Of a DNA stretch of 64,000 nt, positions 41,033 to 48,637 are shown in pieces. The stretch covers positions 620,001-684,000 of the forward strand of contig CP112982.1 of NCBI GenBank assembly GCA_041875495.1. Direction: 5' to 3'. The position numbers were made by a program, and so were the translations under genes. How positions within the stretch are numbered: the stretch's first letter is position 1; the number at the start of each line of letters is the position of its first letter. The notes below the pieces were generated by a model. It made no database searches, had not been told where the DNA came from, and was given only the letters and a program-made list of their open reading frames with translations. Origin of the DNA: Halomonas sp. CH40 (GTDB taxonomy: Bacteria; Pseudomonadota; Gammaproteobacteria; Pseudomonadales; Halomonadaceae).

Positions 41033-41063
41033 GAGATGGCGTATTCTTACGCCATCTCTTTTT
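41033..41063 (+). terminator. Rho-independent terminator after the DUF2189 gene
   Basis: A perfect 11-bp stem GAGATGGCGTA/TACGCCATCTC with loop TTCT is followed by five T. It ends only 27 bp before the ATG of the next gene, whose promoter must therefore overlap it or lie upstream. It may act as an attenuator for the sensory genes. Confidence 0.9.
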
Positions 41064-41090: not shown

Positions 41091-41603
41091 ATGAAAAAAC
41101 GCTTATCAATTGCTGTTTTGTGGCTAGCTTGTGCCTTGCAGGTAGGGGTTGCCAATGCTGGGCAAGATTTGCCTATGCCCGAAGGTCAGGTCATTCTGAA
41201 AATGTCCGGTAATATTGCCCGCACTAATGTTGGTGAAGAGGCGCACTTTGACTTTGCCATGCTTACTGATCTGCCTCAGCATCAGTATTACACTGGCACG
41301 CCTTGGACCAATCAGCCCTTTCACTATAGTGGCCCCTTGATGCGCGATCTGCTGGGCTATCTGGGGGCAGAGGGTGAGCGTACTCACGTGTCAGCGCTGA
41401 ACGGTTATGAAGCCTATATTCCTACCCGTGACTTTGTTGAATACGATGTATTACTGGCCTTGAAGCGTAATGGTGAGCCTATTTCCATTCGTGAATATGG
41501 CCCGCTCTGGGTACTCTATCCTTTTGATCACAATACGGAGCTTCTGAGCGAAATGTTTCGTTCCCGCGCTGTCTGGCAGGTCATGAAGATTAATGTGCGC
41601 TGA
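41091..41603 (+). CDS. Secreted SUOX-fold (molybdopterin-oxidoreductase-like) domain protein
   Basis: 170-residue protein with an N-terminal signal peptide (cleavage after VANA, about residue 23). The rest resembles the small oxidoreductase molybdopterin-binding fold ([44 protein letters not shown]). No cysteine remains after signal removal, so the Mo-ligating Cys of true sulfite oxidases is absent and the domain is probably a sensor or ligand module. Its 3' end overlaps the hybrid kinase gene by 11 nt, which suggests they work together in the periplasm. Confidence 0.8.
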
Positions 41604-43851
41604 CACTGTGTCTCTACGCCAGCCGTCCTTGCTGCGCTACCCCAGGCGGGTCAAGTTTGTCACCATTGTCTCTGTGGTGTTGTTTGCTTCTGCCTTGATG
41701 GTGGCGGCGCTGGCGGCCTGGCGTCAGGACAGCCTGACTCAGGGATTGCGTGAAGATACATCCTGGGTGGTCTATAAGCTTGACCGGGATACTGTCCAGT
41801 TGCTGAATGCCCTCCTGACGGCACCCCGCGAATCACTTTCGGCAGAAGAGCAGGACGCAATCAACCTGCGTTTTGAATTGCTCTATAGCCGCATCAATGT
41901 GTTGACCCAGGGGGAGTTTTCCCGTCTGCTTGGGCAGGTTCCCAATGCCCAGGTGTTGGTTGAAGACATTCGCCAGGCACTGGATATTCTCGACCAATTG
42001 ATTATGCCCTATGAGCAGCAAAGCCCTTTGGCGATGGCTGACATTGAGGACGGCCTGCAAGCGTTGGCGCGGCACACTGAGCGTCTGGTGATGACCATCA
42101 ACGCCTATCAGGCCGAAGCCGCTACCCAGGAACGCGCCCAGCTAAGTGCCCTGTATCGCTTGTTGATCACGCTACTTGTTGGCATGAGCGTTTCGGCCTT
42201 GCTGGTCGTGATGTTTCTGGTGCGTGAAATGCGTGAAAGTGCCTCTGCGCGGCGCGAACAGGAACTGCTTGGCTTGCGACTTGAAGAGTCAGCCAAACAG
42301 GCACGATCAGCCAATCAGGCCAAGTCTGATTTTCTGGCGGTGGTCAGCCATGAAATCCGTACACCGTTGAATGGGGTACTGGGAATGAGCGAGTTGCTGA
42401 TCCAGCCGCAGCAGCATACGCCGAGTCCTCACGAAGTCCGTGTATACGCTCGTACGATTCATGACAGCGCCACCCAGCTGATGAATATGATCAACGACAT
42501 CCTGGATTTTTCCAAGATTGAAGCCGGGCATTTAACCCTGGAAGAAAAACCTGTTGAGCTTGAGGCGTTGATGCGTGGCGTTATTGCCCTGTACGAACCG
42601 CGCGCCCAGGCCAGAGGCATCCATCTGCAGATGCATATTGATAGCACTGCGCCTGCCTGGGTCAGTCTGGATGCCTATCGGGTGCGTCAGGTGTTGCAGA
42701 ACCTGGTGGCCAATGCGCTTAAGTTTACTGAGCAGGGCCAAGTGAAGCTGTCGCTAAGCTGCCATGATGAAGATCAGCTGTTATTGACGGTGACGGATAC
42801 GGGCTGCGGTATTCCAGCGACACAGCAGGATTATCTGTTTGAACCTTTCCAGCAGGCAGATGCTTCGGTCACCCGGCGTTATGGCGGCACAGGGCTGGGG
42901 CTGGCGATCTGTAAACGTCTTTGCGATGCCATGGGAGGCCAGATAGGTGTCAAGAGTCAGCAGGGCCGGGGCAGCACCTTCTGGATGACCTTGCCAAGAG
43001 TGGATGCGCAGCCGCAAGCGCCGTTGGCTACGCCACAAATTAGCCATTTCAGTGATTGCCCGGTACTGCTGGTGGAAGATGATATCGTCAATCGTCGCGT
43101 GGCAGTGGGGATGCTACGCCGTCTGGGTTGTCAGGTGGAGGTGGCAGAAAATGCCCAGCAAGCCCTTGGCCTGATTGAACGCAGACCCTACGATATTATT
43201 CTGATGGATGTCCAGCTACCCGATCAGGACGGCTTGACGCTGACCCGTCAGCTTCGCCAGCAGCCTGGCTGGCTGGCAAAGGTGCCCATTGTAGCCATGA
43301 CCGCCGGTGGCGCTGTCGATGATCGCAAACGCTGCCTGAGTGCAGGAATGAATGACTACCTGACCAAGCCGTTGAGCCTGGCCACACTTAGCCAACGCCT
43401 GGCGCTGTATATCACTGTCGACAGTCAGGTGGTTGAAAAACCGCCCTCGATAGCACCGCTGAATGTTGACAGGCTGTTTGATGGATTGATTGATGGATTA
43501 ATTGATGGCCGGGTACTGCAACAGCTGGAAACCAGCTTGGGCAAGCCAGGGTTAGATAAACTGCTTGGCCTTTTCCTGAAACATGCCGCTGAGTACTTTG
43601 AACAGCTTCGCGGGCAGCTCGCTGTCCAGCCTACACCAACAGCAGATATTCAGCGGCTGACACATCAACTGCGTGGCGAAGCGGCCAGCGTGGGCGCTTT
43701 TGCCATGGCCGATGCTGCCCATAAGCTGCAACAGGCTGTAGAGGCTGAGCGCGCGATAGAGCAACACTGGAAAGCCCTTGAACAGTTTTCCCAGGATACC
43801 TTTAGCGCATTTAAGGCTCTGAAGAAGGGGGTTGATGTTTCATCCTCTTGA
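41593..43851 (+). CDS. Membrane hybrid histidine kinase with receiver and Hpt domains
   Basis: 752-residue phosphorelay kinase. TM1 is about residues 20-42 and TM2 about 185-205, enclosing a 140-residue periplasmic helical sensor. HisKA ([17 protein letters not shown]) and HATPase ([25 protein letters not shown]) follow, then a receiver with Asp in [12 protein letters not shown], and a C-terminal Hpt with histidine in [15 protein letters not shown] perfect DGLI repeat lies in the linker before Hpt. It overlaps the SUOX-like gene by 11 nt and the FIST gene by 20 nt. Ligand and partner regulator are unknown; the LuxR-type regulator at 46311 is a candidate. Confidence 0.93.
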
Positions 43852-45013
43852 CGAACAAGGTGCTCACGAGCCTGACAATGGCATTATCACTGCCGTGAGC
43901 AGCCAACGCCATGCCTGGCGAGCAGTGGCTGAGCTGGCCGCCAGGCTTCATCACCCGGCATTGGGTGGCGTGGTCTTTTTCTGCTCGGCTGAATACGACC
44001 TTGAGGCGCTGGGGCAAGCGCTATCGGAAAGCTTTGCCAAGGTGCCCATATGTGGCTGTACCACAGCCGGGGAAATTACGCCTTCTGGCTACGGGCGAGG
44101 CTGTATCGTTGCGATTGGTTTTGATTGCCGGGTATTCAGCGTGGTGCCTGCCCTAGTGGATGATCTGGTCGGGTTTGACCTGCCCCGCGCCCAGCAGCTG
44201 GTGGATTCCCTGCTGGCCAACTGTCGACCCAAGGCAGTGGCGCCACTGAATGAAAACAGCTTTGTCATGACCCTACTGGACGGCCTTTCCAGCCGTGAAG
44301 AACAGGTGCTGGCGACCCTGGATGCCGCTCTGGGGCGTATTCCCAGTTTTGGCGGCTCTGCCGGAGATGACAATCACCTGACCCACACCCATGTGTTTGC
44401 CGAAGGGGCTTTTCATACCCAGGCAGCGGTCATGTTGATGATCAACACCCGGCTGCCCTTTGATGTCTTTTCTACTCACCATCTTGCCCCGCGTACCGAA
44501 AAGTTTGTGGTAACCGCCGCCGACCGGGAGCAGCGCCGGGTGCGGGAGCTTAACGGTGTGCCTGCCGCCACCCTGTATGCTCAATGGGTGGGTGTGGCGG
44601 TGGAAGACCTGATGCCTGCGCTGTTTGCCCGCTACCCGCTGGCAGTGCGTCTGGGGGATCACTATTTTGTGCGCTCGATCCAGCGCGCCAATCAGGATGG
44701 CAGCCTGAGTTTCTACTGCGCGGTGGAAAACGGCATTGTGCTCAGCGCCATGCGGCCCTTGCCGCTGCTGGCGGATCTGGAAAACATGCTGGATGAGATC
44801 AAGGCGCGTGTGGGGCCGCCTGCCCTGATGATCGGCTGTGACTGCTTTCTGCGCCGCATGGAACTTGAAGCACTCGGCCAGCTGGAGTCAGCCTCGGCGC
44901 TGTTGCGCGCCTCCCAGGTGGTTGGTTTCAATACCTACGGTGAACAGCATCATGGTATGCACGTTAACCAGACCTTTACGGGGGTGGCCTTTGGCACTCT
45001 TTCAGCTGGATGA
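43832..45013 (+). CDS. FIST-domain sensor protein (NosP-like)
   Basis: 393-residue soluble protein with FIST N (about 30-220) and FIST C (about 225-370) domains. Typical blocks are [20 protein letters not shown] and [22 protein letters not shown] proteins bind small ligands; NosP of Pseudomonas aeruginosa is a FIST hemoprotein that senses NO and is co-encoded with the kinase NahK. Here it overlaps the hybrid kinases on both sides (20 nt and 23 nt). NO sensing is an inference from synteny; heme binding cannot be shown from sequence. Confidence 0.88.
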
Positions 45014-46352
45014 TGAGCATGACCAGAACGCTGACCCTCAGGCGCTGGCGGAAGAAAACCGCCGCTTGCGCAAGGTCTGTCAGGCACTGATCGAACGGGT
45101 GGAATCCGGTAGCGCTGCCAATGGGGCTCCCTATGCGGCGTTCGAGCACGCTGTGTTGCTTGCCGAACAGGTGCGCGAGCGCACGGATGCCCTGCATCGC
45201 GCCCTGGATGAGCTAAACCAGGTCAATGCGCAACTGCGCGAAGCCCATGCCGAGGCCCAGGCCGCCAACCAGTCGAAGAGCAAATTCCTGGCAGCGGTCA
45301 GCCATGATCTGCTCCAGCCGCTCAACGCGGCCCGCCTGTTTACCAGCGCCCTGGAAACCCACGCCTTGCCGGAAGATGCCCAGCCATTGGTGGGCCGGAT
45401 CGGCCGTTCATTGAAGGATGTCGAATCACTGCTCGGCACCCTGGTTGATATGTCACGTCTTGATGCCGGCGTATTACAGGCCGATAAAGCACCTTTCAGC
45501 GTCGATACGCTGCTGGATGCCCTGGCCGAGGAATACCGCCAGGTGGCGGGGGTGCGAGGGTTGGCACTGCATTATGTGGGCTCTTCGGTGGTCGTGGAGT
45601 CTGACCTTTCGCTGTTGGCACGCATCATTCGTAATTTCCTCAGCAATGCCGTGCGCTACACCCCTCAAGGCCGGATTCTGCTTGGCTGTCGCCGCCGCCC
45701 AGGCGGGCTTGAAATCATGGTGGCCGATACCGGCCCGGGCATTGCCGAGCAGCAGCGTGAATGGATTTTTCAGGAGTTTCAGCGAGATGCACTCACCAGC
45801 CAACAACATAGCCGTGGGCTGGGGTTAGGGCTGGCGATTGTCGATCGCATCAGCACCATGCTGGCCCATCCGGTGACCCTGGTCTCCAAGCAAGGCCAGG
45901 GCGCCTGCTTCTCGGTGACTGTGCCTTATGGCCAACACGCGCCGCGCCTGCCTGGCCCGGTAACCGCGCGGCTGGAAACGGACTTTAGCCGTCAGGTGGT
46001 CTGGGTGATTGATGATGATCCGACCATTCTGGAAGGGATGCAGGCGCTTTTGGGGCAGTGGGGTTGCCGGGTGCGGGCGGCGGGGACTGTCACGGCGCTG
46101 GAAGCCGCCAGTGACGGTGAACGCCCGCAGGTACTGCTGGTTGACTATCAGCTGGGCCAGCGGCGTGAGAATGGCCTGACGCTGGCCAAGCGTCTGGAAA
46201 GACGATATCCGGGGCTGGCAACGGTGGTGATTACCGCCAACCATGATGCTGAAATCAGCCGTCAGGCCCGTGAAGCCGGGATGCACTGTCTGTTGAAGCC
46301 GCTGAAACCGCTACGCCTGCGTATGCTGTTGACGTCGCTGCTGGCGCAGTGA
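44991..46352 (+). CDS. Soluble hybrid histidine kinase (NahK/ErcS'-like)
   Basis: 453-residue cytoplasmic kinase: an N-terminal coiled coil (about 15-100, AEENRRLRKVC to the NQSKSKF linker), HisKA (VSHDLLQPLNAARLF), HATPase (RNFLSNAVRYTPQG, ADTGPGIAE, RGLGLGLAI) and a C-terminal receiver (VIDDDPTILEG, phospho-Asp in LLVDYQLGQ). HDLLQPL and the C-terminal receiver are traits of the ErcS'/NahK group. The start is uncertain. TTG 44991 has GGGGTGG ahead and is chosen; ATG 44952 in the same frame is the alternative. It overlaps the FIST gene and converges on the LuxR-type regulator gene with a 42-nt overlap. Confidence 0.88.
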   Translation: MALFQLDDEHDQNADPQALAEENRRLRKVCQALIERVESGSAANGAPYAAFEHAVLLAEQVRERTDALHRALDELNQVNAQLREAHAEAQAANQSKSKFLAAVSHDLLQPLNAARLFTSALETHALPEDAQPLVGRIGRSLKDVESLLGTLVDMSRLDAGVLQADKAPFSVDTLLDALAEEYRQVAGVRGLALHYVGSSVVVESDLSLLARIIRNFLSNAVRYTPQGRILLGCRRRPGGLEIMVADTGPGIAEQQREWIFQEFQRDALTSQQHSRGLGLGLAIVDRISTMLAHPVTLVSKQGQGACFSVTVPYGQHAPRLPGPVTARLETDFSRQVVWVIDDDPTILEGMQALLGQWGCRVRAAGTVTALEAASDGERPQVLLVDYQLGQRRENGLTLAKRLERRYPGLATVVITANHDAEISRQAREAGMHCLLKPLKPLRLRMLLTSLLAQ

Positions 46353-47000
46353 TTCGATATCGGCATCCCCCGCCATTACCACGGCATGCACCCGGCTGCT
46401 GGCGCCCAGCTTGCGCAGGATGGCAGAGACGTGGGTTTTAACCGTGGTTTCAGCAATCTCCAGTTCCCGGGCAATTTCCTTGTTGGAACTGCCGCGCCCC
46501 ATGCAGGCCAGCACCGCTAGCTGTTTATCGGTCAGCTTAAGTACCGCACTATTGATGATAGGCGGCGCGACGGCACTGGCCGCCGGGGCCTCGTCAATTG
46601 GGCGGCGCATGATGTCGGAGGGCAGGTAAACCTGGCCGCCAAGAATCTGTTCCAGTGCATTCAGCAGTGCTTCGCGCGGGGTGGATTTGGGAATATAGCC
46701 CACCGCACCTAATGCCAGGGCATCGAGTATATGCTGGCGGGTCTGGCTGGCCGAAATGATGGCCACCGGCAGCCAGGGCTGCTGCTGACGCACCTGCTGT
46801 AAACCTTCCAGCCCCTGGGCATCTGGCAGGCTGAGATCCAGTAGTAACAGATCCAGATCCGGGTGCTGCTCAGCCAGGGTAAGCGCTGCGGCCAGGGAAT
46901 CGGCTTCATGTAGCTGGCAATCCGCCATGCCGCCCAGAATCACCGCCTGCAGGGCATCGCGGAACAGCGGGTGGTCATCAGCAACCAGCAGTGAAACCAT
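46311..47000 (-). CDS. LuxR-type response regulator (ErbR/AgmR-like)
   Basis: 229-residue NarL/LuxR-class regulator. The receiver (residues 1-120) has the acidic pair in VADDHPLF and the phospho-acceptor Asp in LLLLDLSLPDAQG; a Pro-rich linker leads to the helix-turn-helix (LTDKQLAVLACMGRGSSNKEIARELEIAETTVKTHV). ATG 47000 has AGGAGC upstream. It is divergent from the ExaC-type aldehyde dehydrogenase over 116 bp. In P. aeruginosa, ErbR (AgmR) controls ethanol oxidation genes including exaC, and the ercS' kinase is nearby, so it probably governs the dehydrogenase here (inference). Confidence 0.9.
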   Translation of the reverse strand: MVSLLVADDHPLFRDALQAVILGGMADCQLHEADSLAAALTLAEQHPDLDLLLLDLSLPDAQGLEGLQQVRQQQPWLPVAIISASQTRQHILDALALGAVGYIPKSTPREALLNALEQILGGQVYLPSDIMRRPIDEAPAASAVAPPIINSAVLKLTDKQLAVLACMGRGSSNKEIARELEIAETTVKTHVSAILRKLGASSRVHAVVMAGDADIESLRQQRRQQHTQA

Positions 47001-47025
47001 GCGAGCTCCTACCAATGGATGAGGG

Positions 47026-47037
47026 TGGCTAGTGCCA
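47026..47037. promoter_or_regulatory. Inverted repeat in the regulator / exaC divergent promoter
   Basis: TGGCTAGTGCCA is an interrupted palindrome (TGGC-N4-GCCA) in the 116-bp spacer shared by the LuxR-type regulator and exaC. It is a possible binding site of that regulator; evidence is shape and position only. Confidence 0.35.
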
Positions 47038-47116
47038 ATGGGCGATGTTGTCCGCTCCCGGCATGGCCAACACTGTGAAAGCACCTTTAATAATCATAAT
47101 ACTCAGGAGCACTTTC

Positions 47117-48637
47117 ATGATTTACGCCAACCCCGGTGAGACCGGCTCAGTCATTACCTTCGACAAGCGTTACGGCAACTATATTGGTGGCGAGTTCGTA
47201 GCGCCAGTCAATGGTCAATATTTCGACAACGTCAGCCCTGTCAACGGCGCGGTATTCTGTGAAATTCCCCGCTCCACCCAGGAGGATATCGACAAGGCGC
47301 TTGACGCCGCCCATGCCGCGGCGCCTGCCTGGGGGAAAACCTCTGCCGCCGAGCGCAGCAATATTCTGCTCAAGATTGCCGACCGCATGGAGCAGCACCT
47401 GGAAATGCTCGCCGTCGCCGAAACCTGGGACAACGGCAAAGCGGTACGTGAGACCGTGAACGCTGACTTGCCGCTGGCCGTTGACCACTTCCGTTATTTT
47501 GCTGGCTGTATCCGCAGCCAGGAAGGCACTGCCGCGGATATCGATGCCAACACCGTCGCCTATCACTTCCATGAACCGCTGGGTGTGGTCGGGCAGATTA
47601 TCCCGTGGAACTTCCCACTGCTGATGGCGACCTGGAAGCTGGCCCCGGCACTGGCCGCCGGTAACTGCGTGGTACTCAAACCCGCCGAGCAGACGCCAGC
47701 CTCCATCCTGGAATTTGCCAAACTGGTCGGTGATCTTTTACCCCCAGGCGTGCTGAATATCGTCAACGGCTATGGCGCTGAAGCTGGCCAGGCGCTGGCG
47801 AGCAGCAAGCGCATCGCCAAGATCGCCTTTACCGGGTCAACGCCAGTCGGCTCACATATTCTGAAATGCGCGGCCGAGAACATTATTCCTTCGACCGTTG
47901 AGCTGGGTGGCAAGTCACCCAACATCTATTTTGCCGATGTCATGAACGCCGAGCCTGAGTTTATTGATAAATGCGTGGAAGGGCTAGTGCTGGCGTTTTT
48001 CAACCAGGGCGAAGTGTGCACCTGCCCATCGCGGGCTCTGGTTCAGGAGTCCATGTACGACGAGTTTATGGCCAAGGTGGTTGAACGTACCCAGAACATC
48101 AAGCGCGGTAACCCTCTGGATACCGATGTACAGGTAGGCGCCCAGGCCTCCCAGGAGCAGTTCGACAAGATCATGTCCTACATGGATATTGCCCGTGATG
48201 AAGGCGCCCAGTTCCTGACTGGCGGCGACCGGGAAACACTGGATGCCAGCATCAATGATGGTTTCTACATCCAGCCGACCCTGCTCACGGGCGACAACAA
48301 GATGCGTGTCTTCCAGGAAGAGATCTTCGGGCCTGTGGTGGCGGTCACCACCTTCAAGGATGAAGCGGAAGCGCTGGCGATTGCCAACGATACCGAGTTT
48401 GGCCTGGGCGCGGGTGTCTGGAGCCGCGATATGAACGTTGCTTTCCGCATGGGGCGCGGCATTCAGGCAGGGCGCGTGTGGACCAACTGCTACCACCAGT
48501 ACCCGGCACACGCAGCCTTTGGTGGTTACAAGAAATCCGGCGTCGGGCGCGAGACCCACAAGGTAGCGCTGGAGCACTATCAGCAGACCAAGAACCTGCT
48601 GGTCAGCTACGATATCAACCCGCTAGGCTTTTTCTAG
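47117..48637 (+). CDS. exaC: NAD-dependent aldehyde dehydrogenase, ExaC type
   Basis: 506-residue dehydrogenase oxidising acetaldehyde and other aldehydes to acids. Family sites are present: [10 protein letters not shown], the NAD-loop [11 protein letters not shown], catalytic Glu in VELGGKSPN and catalytic Cys in [10 protein letters not shown]. The ending [10 protein letters not shown] and overall sequence agree closely with ExaC of Pseudomonas as I recall it. ATG 47117 (AGGAGC ahead) is chosen over a frame that extends 24 codons upstream. It is divergent from the regulator gene. No PQQ-ethanol dehydrogenase or pqq gene is in the window. Confidence 0.93.

What the first reader, a model, noticed from the sequence alone, without database searches (positions are those of the whole stretch)
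41091..48637. Overlapping five-gene phosphorelay cluster: SUOX-fold periplasmic protein, two hybrid kinases, FIST sensor and LuxR-type regulator facing exaC
Seen: frames overlap by 11, 20 and about 23 nt, and the regulator converges with a 42-nt overlap. Known: a FIST protein (NosP) with NahK/ErcS', and ErbR with exaC, are linked in Pseudomonas. New here is a second, membrane-bound hybrid kinase with Hpt coupled to a secreted SUOX-fold protein in the same unit. Inference: one phosphorelay combines a periplasmic and a cytosolic (possibly NO or heme) signal to control aldehyde oxidation. The Hpt of the first kinase could receive phosphate from either kinase.
Basis: partly seen in the sequence, partly recalled or inferred. 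Interest (0 to 1): 0.78.

Follow-up and report, generated by a model that had tools for sequence, protein, structure and literature searches.

The report
Likely pterin and NO sensor operon
In a salt-loving bacterium, genes for a likely pterin sensor and a likely nitric-oxide or heme sensor, each with its own kinase, overlap in one gene cluster beside an aldehyde dehydrogenase gene; both sensor types are known, and their fusion is a lineage-specific variant that may let one cell pathway read two signals.

Summary
In detail: overlaps of 11, 20, 23 and (convergent) 42 nt. The identities can be sharpened. The 'SUOX-fold' protein is PruR-like (its model matches PruR crystal structures). The first kinase is its PruR-DTB partner (W-x7-D, HisKA, REC, Hpt). 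The FIST protein is NosP; the second kinase is NahK/ErcS-family; the LuxR-type regulator is not ErdR and sits where AgmR/ErbR does; the dehydrogenase is ExaC. Both pairs are known kinds; I found their fusion in no paper searched. In the genus (Vreelandella) the pairs abut in 7 of 7 genomes, with the NosP start 20 or 23 nt before the kinase stop in 43 of 45 abutting loci. In 14 other family genomes they lie 9-17 kb apart with the fructose-PTS operon between. In 14 Vreelandella-clade loci NosP-NahK-regulator is missing after the kinase, while PruR-kinase stays (ExaC too in 9). So these are two separable modules run together in one lineage, not an obligate five-gene phosphorelay. Indirect support for integration: a second cluster in the same genome, where a FIST-linked and a PruR-linked kinase both lack Hpt beside one stand-alone Hpt gene. 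Transcription, ligands, phosphotransfer and ExaC control are untested.

The parts
41033..41058 (+). Terminator-like hairpin followed by a T run, between the DUF2189 gene and pruR, about 27 nt before the pruR start
   Evidence: 8 terminator-like sites found in the scanned region against 7.5 expected in shuffles; this is the longest stem, 11 pairs. A scan upstream of pruR gave a hairpin plus T-rich tail in 36 of 102 loci, not all of the same sequence kind
41091..41603 (+). PruR-like protein (170 aa), SUOX fold, no cysteine outside the apparent signal peptide; N104, Y106, W162 align with the pterin residues of PruR
41593..43851 (+). DTB-type membrane hybrid histidine kinase (752 aa): helical region with W58-x7-D66 between two long helices taken as TM by inspection, HisKA (H253), HATPase, REC (D539), Hpt (H691)
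   Evidence: model pLDDT 78.9, pTM 0.40
42349..42351 (+). Phospho-acceptor His253 codon (HisKA)
43207..43209 (+). REC Asp539 codon
43663..43665 (+). Hpt His691 codon
43832..45013 (+). NosP (FIST N + FIST C), NosP equivalog 544.1 bits against cut-off 450; TTG 43832 or ATG 43835 start
44991..46352 (+). Soluble NahK/ErcS-family hybrid kinase (about 454 aa from TTG): HisKA H105, HATPase, REC D385; no PAS or Hpt match in Pfam
46311..47000 (-). NarL/LuxR-type response regulator in the AgmR/ErbR position; not ErdR
47001..47116 (.). Intergenic region between the divergent regulator and exaC (presumed control region)
   Evidence: no sigma-70-like site in it
47117..48637 (+). ExaC acetaldehyde dehydrogenase, 963.9 bits against cut-off 900

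Best explanation
The cluster is two known sensory modules joined end to end. Module 1 is PruR plus a DTB-type membrane hybrid kinase: PruR in the periplasm, loaded with a reduced pterin, is inferred to bind the kinase's helical periplasmic domain and set its H253-D539-H691 relay. Module 2 is NosP plus a soluble NahK/ErcS-family kinase plus a NarL-type regulator, next to exaC: NosP is inferred to sense NO or heme and set kinase activity, and the regulator is inferred to control exaC. In 14 other genomes of the family the modules are neighbours separated by the fructose-PTS operon; in the Vreelandella clade they abut with overlapping frames. Shown here: identities by sequence and model, gene order, conserved overlaps, independent loss of module 2. 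Inferred: loss of fru from between them (parsimony), co-expression, ligands, regulator target. Open: whether NahK's receiver hands phosphate to the DTB Hpt.
For: PruR: best PDB sequence matches are pterin-binding proteins (7rkb 4.4e-33, 7kos 1.1e-29) and the model matches 7rkb/7kos at TM 0.94 of the target. DTB: W in 115 of 115 aligned partners, eight residues before D (72) or E (43); kinase His and receiver Asp in 115 of 115 (six truncated rows dropped); the TorS model is the best NCBIfam hit, as the review says of DTB. NosP and ExaC pass curated cut-offs. Linkage: of 70 FIST hits in 54 of 81 genomes, 23 (22 genomes) lie within 20 kb of a PruR; in 22 of the 23 PruR is upstream on the same strand; window's genus 7 of 7 at 2.3-2.4 kb. 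The 14 genomes at 9.4-17 kb all have fruA between PruR and FIST (coordinates); 13 of the 14 were fetched and show fruR, fruB-type fusion, fruK, fruA. fruA is elsewhere in all 7 genus genomes and not found in G052. Tree: abutting order in the Vreelandella clade (56 rows, support 100) and separately in G052 + H. ventosae 1_TX.
Against: No expression data. Of the 70 FIST hits, 7 have a PruR on the same contig but over 300 kb away and 40 have none on the same contig. A terminator-like hairpin sits just before pruR and no sigma-70-like site was found near it, so the promoter is unknown. The tree was the quick method with long branches and a midpoint root; insertion of fru instead of its loss is not excluded. 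Window DTB has D, not E, in the WX7E motif. G013 carries NosP-NahK-regulator-exaC beside the same upstream genes without PruR-DTB. One genus genome (G010, L017) has no exaC in the fetched 7.9 kb beyond NosP.
Confidence: 0.66

Rival explanations
1. Shared-Hpt integration: the NahK-type receiver, which has no Hpt of its own, passes phosphate to the DTB Hpt (H691), so pterin and NO/heme signals meet in one phosphorelay that ends on the LuxR-type regulator and exaC.
For: The NahK-type kinase has REC and no Hpt match; the DTB Hpt is the nearest of 5 Hpt matches in the genome. A second cluster in the same genome (L007) holds FIST-HHK and PruR-HHK, both without Hpt, beside the only Hpt match in a short frame. 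15 of 15 full-length related type-B DTB kinases have Hpt (L147, L149, L150 dropped as truncated), and so, by similarity, does the one FIST-linked comparator kinase, of G002. V. azerica (L149) shows the same cluster, DTB end and short Hpt as the window's genome.
Against: DTB Hpt is kept in 41 of 42 aligned DTB-labelled loci with no NosP in the fetched stretch, so it is not there for NahK. NosP-NahK-regulator exists without DTB in G013, whose only Hpt match is in a 692-aa frame. The stand-alone Hpt is an alternative partner, as HptB is for NahK in P. aeruginosa (PMC11784011, passages). The second cluster was seen only in the window's genome and its close relative.
Confidence: 0.32
2. Neutral juxtaposition: loss of the fru operon placed two unrelated modules side by side and the overlaps are only a scar; each module still acts alone.
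For: PruR-DTB sits behind TAXI-TRAP-Usp-DUF2189 genes in many loci with and without NosP. In 14 rows of the 56-row Vreelandella clade NosP is not after the kinase; 9 of the 14 keep exaC directly after the kinase, and the NosP model finds nothing in 11 of the 14 genomes, a NosP elsewhere in 2 (L092, L102) and a weak hit below cut-off in 1 (L076).
Against: The -20/-23 NosP start relative to the kinase stop is kept in 43 of 45 abutting loci; where the two are within 20 kb, order and strand are the same in 22 of 23.
Confidence: 0.4
3. The SUOX-fold protein is a small molybdenum enzyme rather than a sensor part.
For: Pfam names it Oxidored_molyb (27.3 bits, cut-off 24) and databases call its homologues molybdopterin-dependent oxidoreductase.
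Against: No cysteine in the sequence after the apparent signal peptide, Trp in the PruR position invariant in 29 of 29 rows aligned, 170 aa only, nearest structures all PruR.
Confidence: 0.03

Closest known systems
PruR-DcpA / PruR-DTB pterin signalling (Agrobacterium PruR, DTB of Ruegeria; review PMC13259868, abstract, sections 5 and 8 and passages seen)
   Same: Adjacent gene pair, ~170-aa SUOX-fold protein without the Moco cysteine, pterin-site Tyr/Asn/Trp, downstream membrane protein with WX7[E/D] in its periplasmic part, TorS-like kinase
   Different: Kinase adds a C-terminal Hpt; D replaces E in the motif here; abuts NosP-NahK in the Vreelandella clade; no response regulator of its own labelled beside it in the NosP-less loci
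NosP-NahK (ErcS') of Pseudomonas and nosP-pedS1-agmR in the ped cluster (PMC12997753, passages); NosP-NahK-NarR of Legionella (PMC8846402, passages)
   Same: FIST protein next to a hybrid kinase and, in Pseudomonas putida, a LuxR-type regulator and an exaC homologue in the same cluster
   Different: Kinase is short (454 aa) with no PAS match; preceded by PruR-DTB. I did not search for PQQ-dehydrogenase genes
HptB-mediated relay of P. aeruginosa (PMC11784011, passages)
   Same: NahK hands phosphate to a stand-alone Hpt; a model for the stand-alone Hpt of the second cluster
   Different: The stand-alone Hpt here lies beside a FIST/PruR cluster with an RR-GGDEF-EAL protein; no NCBIfam match at 1e-10

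Membership tests
PruR | SUOX-type fold close to PruR structures | tested here: met
   7rkb and 7kos E 2.0e-17 and 3.3e-17, TM 0.94 of target; model pLDDT 84.4
PruR | No Mo-ligating cysteine; Trp instead; pterin-contacting Tyr (or Phe) | tested here: met
   W162 invariant in 29 of 29; Y106 and N104 present in the window protein. Residue roles are from PMC13259868
PruR | Secretion signal, ~170 aa | tested here: inconclusive
   170 aa; N-terminus looks like a signal peptide by eye, no predictor was run
PruR | Binds reduced pterin, then binds its partner | not testable with these tools
   needs protein
DTB kinase | Encoded directly downstream of pruR | tested here: met
   11-nt overlap here
DTB kinase | Periplasmic domain with WX7E | tested here: inconclusive
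   W-x7-D in the window; W in 115 of 115, E in 43, D in 72
DTB kinase | TorS/BaeS-like kinase part | tested here: met
   TIGR02956 TorS best hit, 451.3 bits (below TorS's own cut-off of 676.5)
NosP | NF041558 over curated cut-off, next to a hybrid kinase | tested here: met
   544.1 against 450
NosP | Binds heme and NO | not testable with these tools
   needs protein; the heme ligand was not assigned here
NahK proper (NF041831) | Model over cut-off 1500 | tested here: not met
   454.9 bits; it passes the wider NahK/ErcS family model NF041832 (488 against 400)
ErdR | NF041830 cut-off 390 | tested here: not met
   149.7 bits; a better ErdR-like protein (267.7 bits, also below cut-off) lies at C1:607829
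AgmR/ErbR | LuxR-type regulator beside nosP-nahK | tested here: inconclusive
   Position fits. No AgmR model was tested
ExaC | NF050026 cut-off 900 | tested here: met
   963.9

The most novel reading that the evidence does not exclude
Pterin (periplasm) and NO/heme (cytosol) signals are integrated by hybrid kinases that share one Hpt: through H691 of the DTB kinase in this operon, and through a stand-alone Hpt in a second FIST-kinase/PruR-kinase/c-di-GMP cluster of the same genome, where both kinases lack the Hpt that their relatives carry.
Probability: 0.3. Interest if true: 0.72.

Novelty: new variant of a known kind. Interest (0 to 1): 0.5.

Why it matters
Pterin signalling in bacteria is newly described, and its wiring has been worked out in Agrobacterium, as far as the parts of the review that I read tell. 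Here a PruR pair sits in one run of genes with a NosP pair, and natural relatives lack one module, keep the two apart, or (second cluster) have one Hpt for two kinases. That makes it directly testable whether two redox-linked cues converge on one relay.

Tried and rejected
Moco-enzyme reading of the first gene: rejected. ErdR as the regulator: rejected. A functional unit with the fructose PTS: PruR-DTB neighbours fru in many loci of other genera, but the Vreelandella clade has them apart and I found no further link. Rfam: one hit far below its gathering score, ignored. Linkage outside the family (194 order genomes: NosP in 31, PruR at 1e-15 in 27): nine genomes outside the family hold both; in three they share a contig about 1 Mb apart, in six they are on different contigs, so no linkage was seen, though contig breaks limit this. 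FolM as pteridine reductase: no hit over cut-off in the own genome; an SDR at C1:3456383 has TGGATRLG and YLLSK, fitting the TGX3RXG and YX3K motifs quoted in PMC13259868, but stays below all pteridine-reductase cut-offs shown.

Limits of the counts. The Hpt family survey lists only the stronger matches, so weaker stand-alone Hpts in relatives are unknown. One search used 109 PruR rows and left out the 16 weakest (under 52 bits), and all 70 FIST rows; FIST hits include proteins that are not NosP. The named loci come from one peptide pattern and the best 80 of 104, so they favour relatives of this PruR; their flanks are 7 kb, so a NosP farther off would not be seen. Of the 80: 37 NosP next, 19 type A with neither NosP nor fruR, 8 with fruR, 3 doubtful, 11 type B, 2 with no kinase frame found (L079, L132; L079 has NosP pieces next to it). 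The alignment of 115 kinases dropped six truncated rows (L043, L049, L100, L147, L149, L150). The tree has 102 rows: the remaining DTB-labelled rows and 3 type-B rows. Gene calls in scripts are simple ORF calls with BLAST labels, not curated annotation. The confidences of the best explanation and of the first two rivals overlap, since those rivals are stronger and weaker readings of the same anatomy.
Full report
WHAT IS THERE. Six genes: pruR-like (41091-41603), a membrane hybrid kinase (41593-43851), nosP (43832/43835-45013), a soluble hybrid kinase (44991-46352), all +; a NarL/LuxR-type regulator (46311-47000, -) and exaC (47117-48637, +) diverging from it.

IDENTITIES. The first protein is matched best in the PDB by pterin-binding PruR proteins (7rkb, 7kos). 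An AlphaFold model from 29 aligned sequences (pLDDT 84.4) matches them at TM 0.94 of the target; true sulfite oxidases come later (TM about 0.53-0.60 of the query). It has no cysteine outside the apparent signal peptide, and keeps the Tyr, Asn and Trp that the review PMC13259868 names at the pterin site (abstract, sections 5 and 8 and passages seen). The kinase next to it has a helical stretch between two long helices (model pLDDT 78.9, pTM 0.40) carrying the W-x7-D variant of the WX7E motif, then HisKA, HATPase, REC and Hpt: the PruR-DTB pairing of the review. NosP and ExaC pass NCBIfam cut-offs; the second kinase passes the NahK/ErcS family model. The regulator is not ErdR: a better, still sub-cut-off, ErdR-like protein lies about 59 kb away. 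Its place beside nosP-nahK is that of AgmR in the ped cluster (PMC12997753, passages); sequence alone does not decide.

HOW THE CLUSTER AROSE. In 81 genomes of the family FIST occurs in 54 and PruR-like proteins in 63. Of 70 FIST hits, 23 (in 22 genomes) lie within 20 kb of a PruR, 7 have one on the same contig over 300 kb away, and 40 have none on the same contig. In the window's genus it is 7 of 7 at 2.3-2.4 kb. G052 of another genus also has 2.4 kb. In 14 other genomes the distance is 9.4-17 kb; fruA lies between in all 14 by coordinates, and the 13 of them that I fetched show the fructose-PTS operon there. Upstream genes (TAXI, TRAP, Usp, DUF2189) are shared with many loci that have no NosP. 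fruA is at another site in all seven genus genomes and not found in G052. 80 named loci and matching contig lengths (G033 with V. maris, G069 with V. hamiltonii) show that the genus is Vreelandella; nearest kin is V. azerica. On a quick tree of 102 kinases the abutting order appears in the Vreelandella clade and, separately, in G052 with Halomonas ventosae 1_TX. The simplest reading is loss of fru from between two older neighbours, twice; the tree is not good enough to exclude insertion.

IS IT ONE UNIT? For: start positions at the junctions are conserved (kinase -11/-14 in 42 of 45; NosP -20/-23 in 43 of 45). Against: 14 of the 56 clade rows lack NosP after the kinase; in 9 of these exaC follows the kinase directly, about 90-240 nt on. 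The NosP model finds nothing in 11 of those 14 genomes, a NosP elsewhere in 2, and a weak hit in 1. So NosP, NahK and regulator left together while PruR-DTB stayed; DTB-labelled kinases without NosP in view keep Hpt in 41 of 42. The regulator is with NosP-NahK in 68 of 75 NosP loci, the other 7 ending too early to tell. exaC (over 60% identity) is in 19 of 23 NosP loci with at least 5.2 kb of room, 1.0-6.3 kb downstream in 16 and upstream in 3; the four misses include one genus genome, G010.

THE HPT QUESTION. Pfam finds five Hpt domains in the genome: in frames of 723, 903 and 905 aa, in the window kinase, and in one short frame. The short one (116 aa, C1:3335337-3335687) lies beside a second cluster: RR-GGDEF-EAL, FIST (no NCBIfam match at 1e-60, so not NosP by that model), hybrid kinase with two receivers, PruR, DTB kinase. 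Both kinases there lack Hpt. Of 115 aligned DTB kinases 113 have it; the two without are this one and an out-of-family row, L064. The one FIST-linked comparator kinase, of G002, has an Hpt-like end by similarity. V. azerica has the same cluster and short Hpt (its kinase row was left out as broken). No FIST gene was labelled beside the other type-B PruR-kinase loci fetched. This suggests, without proving it, that a FIST-linked and a PruR-linked kinase can share an Hpt. Against carrying this over to the window: G013 has the NosP module with one Hpt match only, in a 692-aa frame.

CONTROL REGION. A hairpin with T run ends about 27 nt before pruR; a scan upstream of pruR found hairpins with T-rich tails in 36 of 102 loci, many of closely related sequence. 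It probably ends the upstream operon; where the pruR promoter lies is unknown.

LITERATURE. Searches 'NosP'+'NahK'+'nitric oxide' (7 papers), 'PruR'+'pterin'+'DcpA' (3), 'Halomonas'+'NosP' (4), 'PruR'+'NosP' (1), 'DcpA-TorS-BaeS'/'PruR-DTB' (1), 'pterin'+'NosP'+'operon' (1) and 'NahK'+'NarR'+'Burkholderia' (2) showed no description of the linkage in the listings and passages I saw. Most subscription papers are not held, and the primary PruR survey could not be read.

VERDICT. A real operon-like fusion of two known sensory modules, kept across most of one clade; ordinary in its parts, unusual in its combination. The single-phosphorelay reading is possible but not shown.

Noticed in passing
L007:1616-11688 (own genome C1:3325615-3335687): Second FIST/PruR cluster: stand-alone Hpt, RR-GGDEF-EAL, FIST, two-receiver kinase, PruR, DTB kinase, then an HDOD/EAL protein; both kinases lack Hpt.
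   Followed up: partly
L008:5078-8521 (own genome C1:1952077-1955520): Third PruR-like pair: PruR, histidine kinase without receiver, receiver-LuxR regulator.
   Followed up: partly
L009:4508-6228 (own genome C1:549507-551227): Divergent PruR-like protein in front of a GGDEF protein.
   Followed up: partly
own genome C1:1588072-1588395: A fifth, weak PruR-like match (40.5 bits).
   Followed up: no
window 41033-41058: Long terminator-like hairpin immediately before pruR, with related hairpins in other Vreelandella-clade loci; possible attenuator or just the end of the upstream operon.
   Followed up: partly
L011-L016, L023-L029, L034-L037, L039: PruR-DTB sits near cra/fruR and the fructose-PTS operon in these other-genus loci, with or without NosP.
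   Followed up: partly
L054 (G013): NosP-NahK-regulator-exaC next to the TAXI-TRAP-Usp-DUF2189 block without PruR-DTB or fru.
   Followed up: partly
L058 (G003): A DTB-like remnant (413-aa ORF) with an Hpt match directly before nosP on a 9.5-kb contig, with no PruR hit on that contig.
   Followed up: no
L166:1501-2259 (own genome near C1:3456383): SDR with the TGX3RXG signature of pteridine reductases, a candidate PruA-like enzyme, below curated cut-offs.
   Followed up: partly
L155 (own genome C1:607829-608455): ErdR/CrbR-like regulator just outside the window, 267.7 bits (cut-off 390).
   Followed up: no
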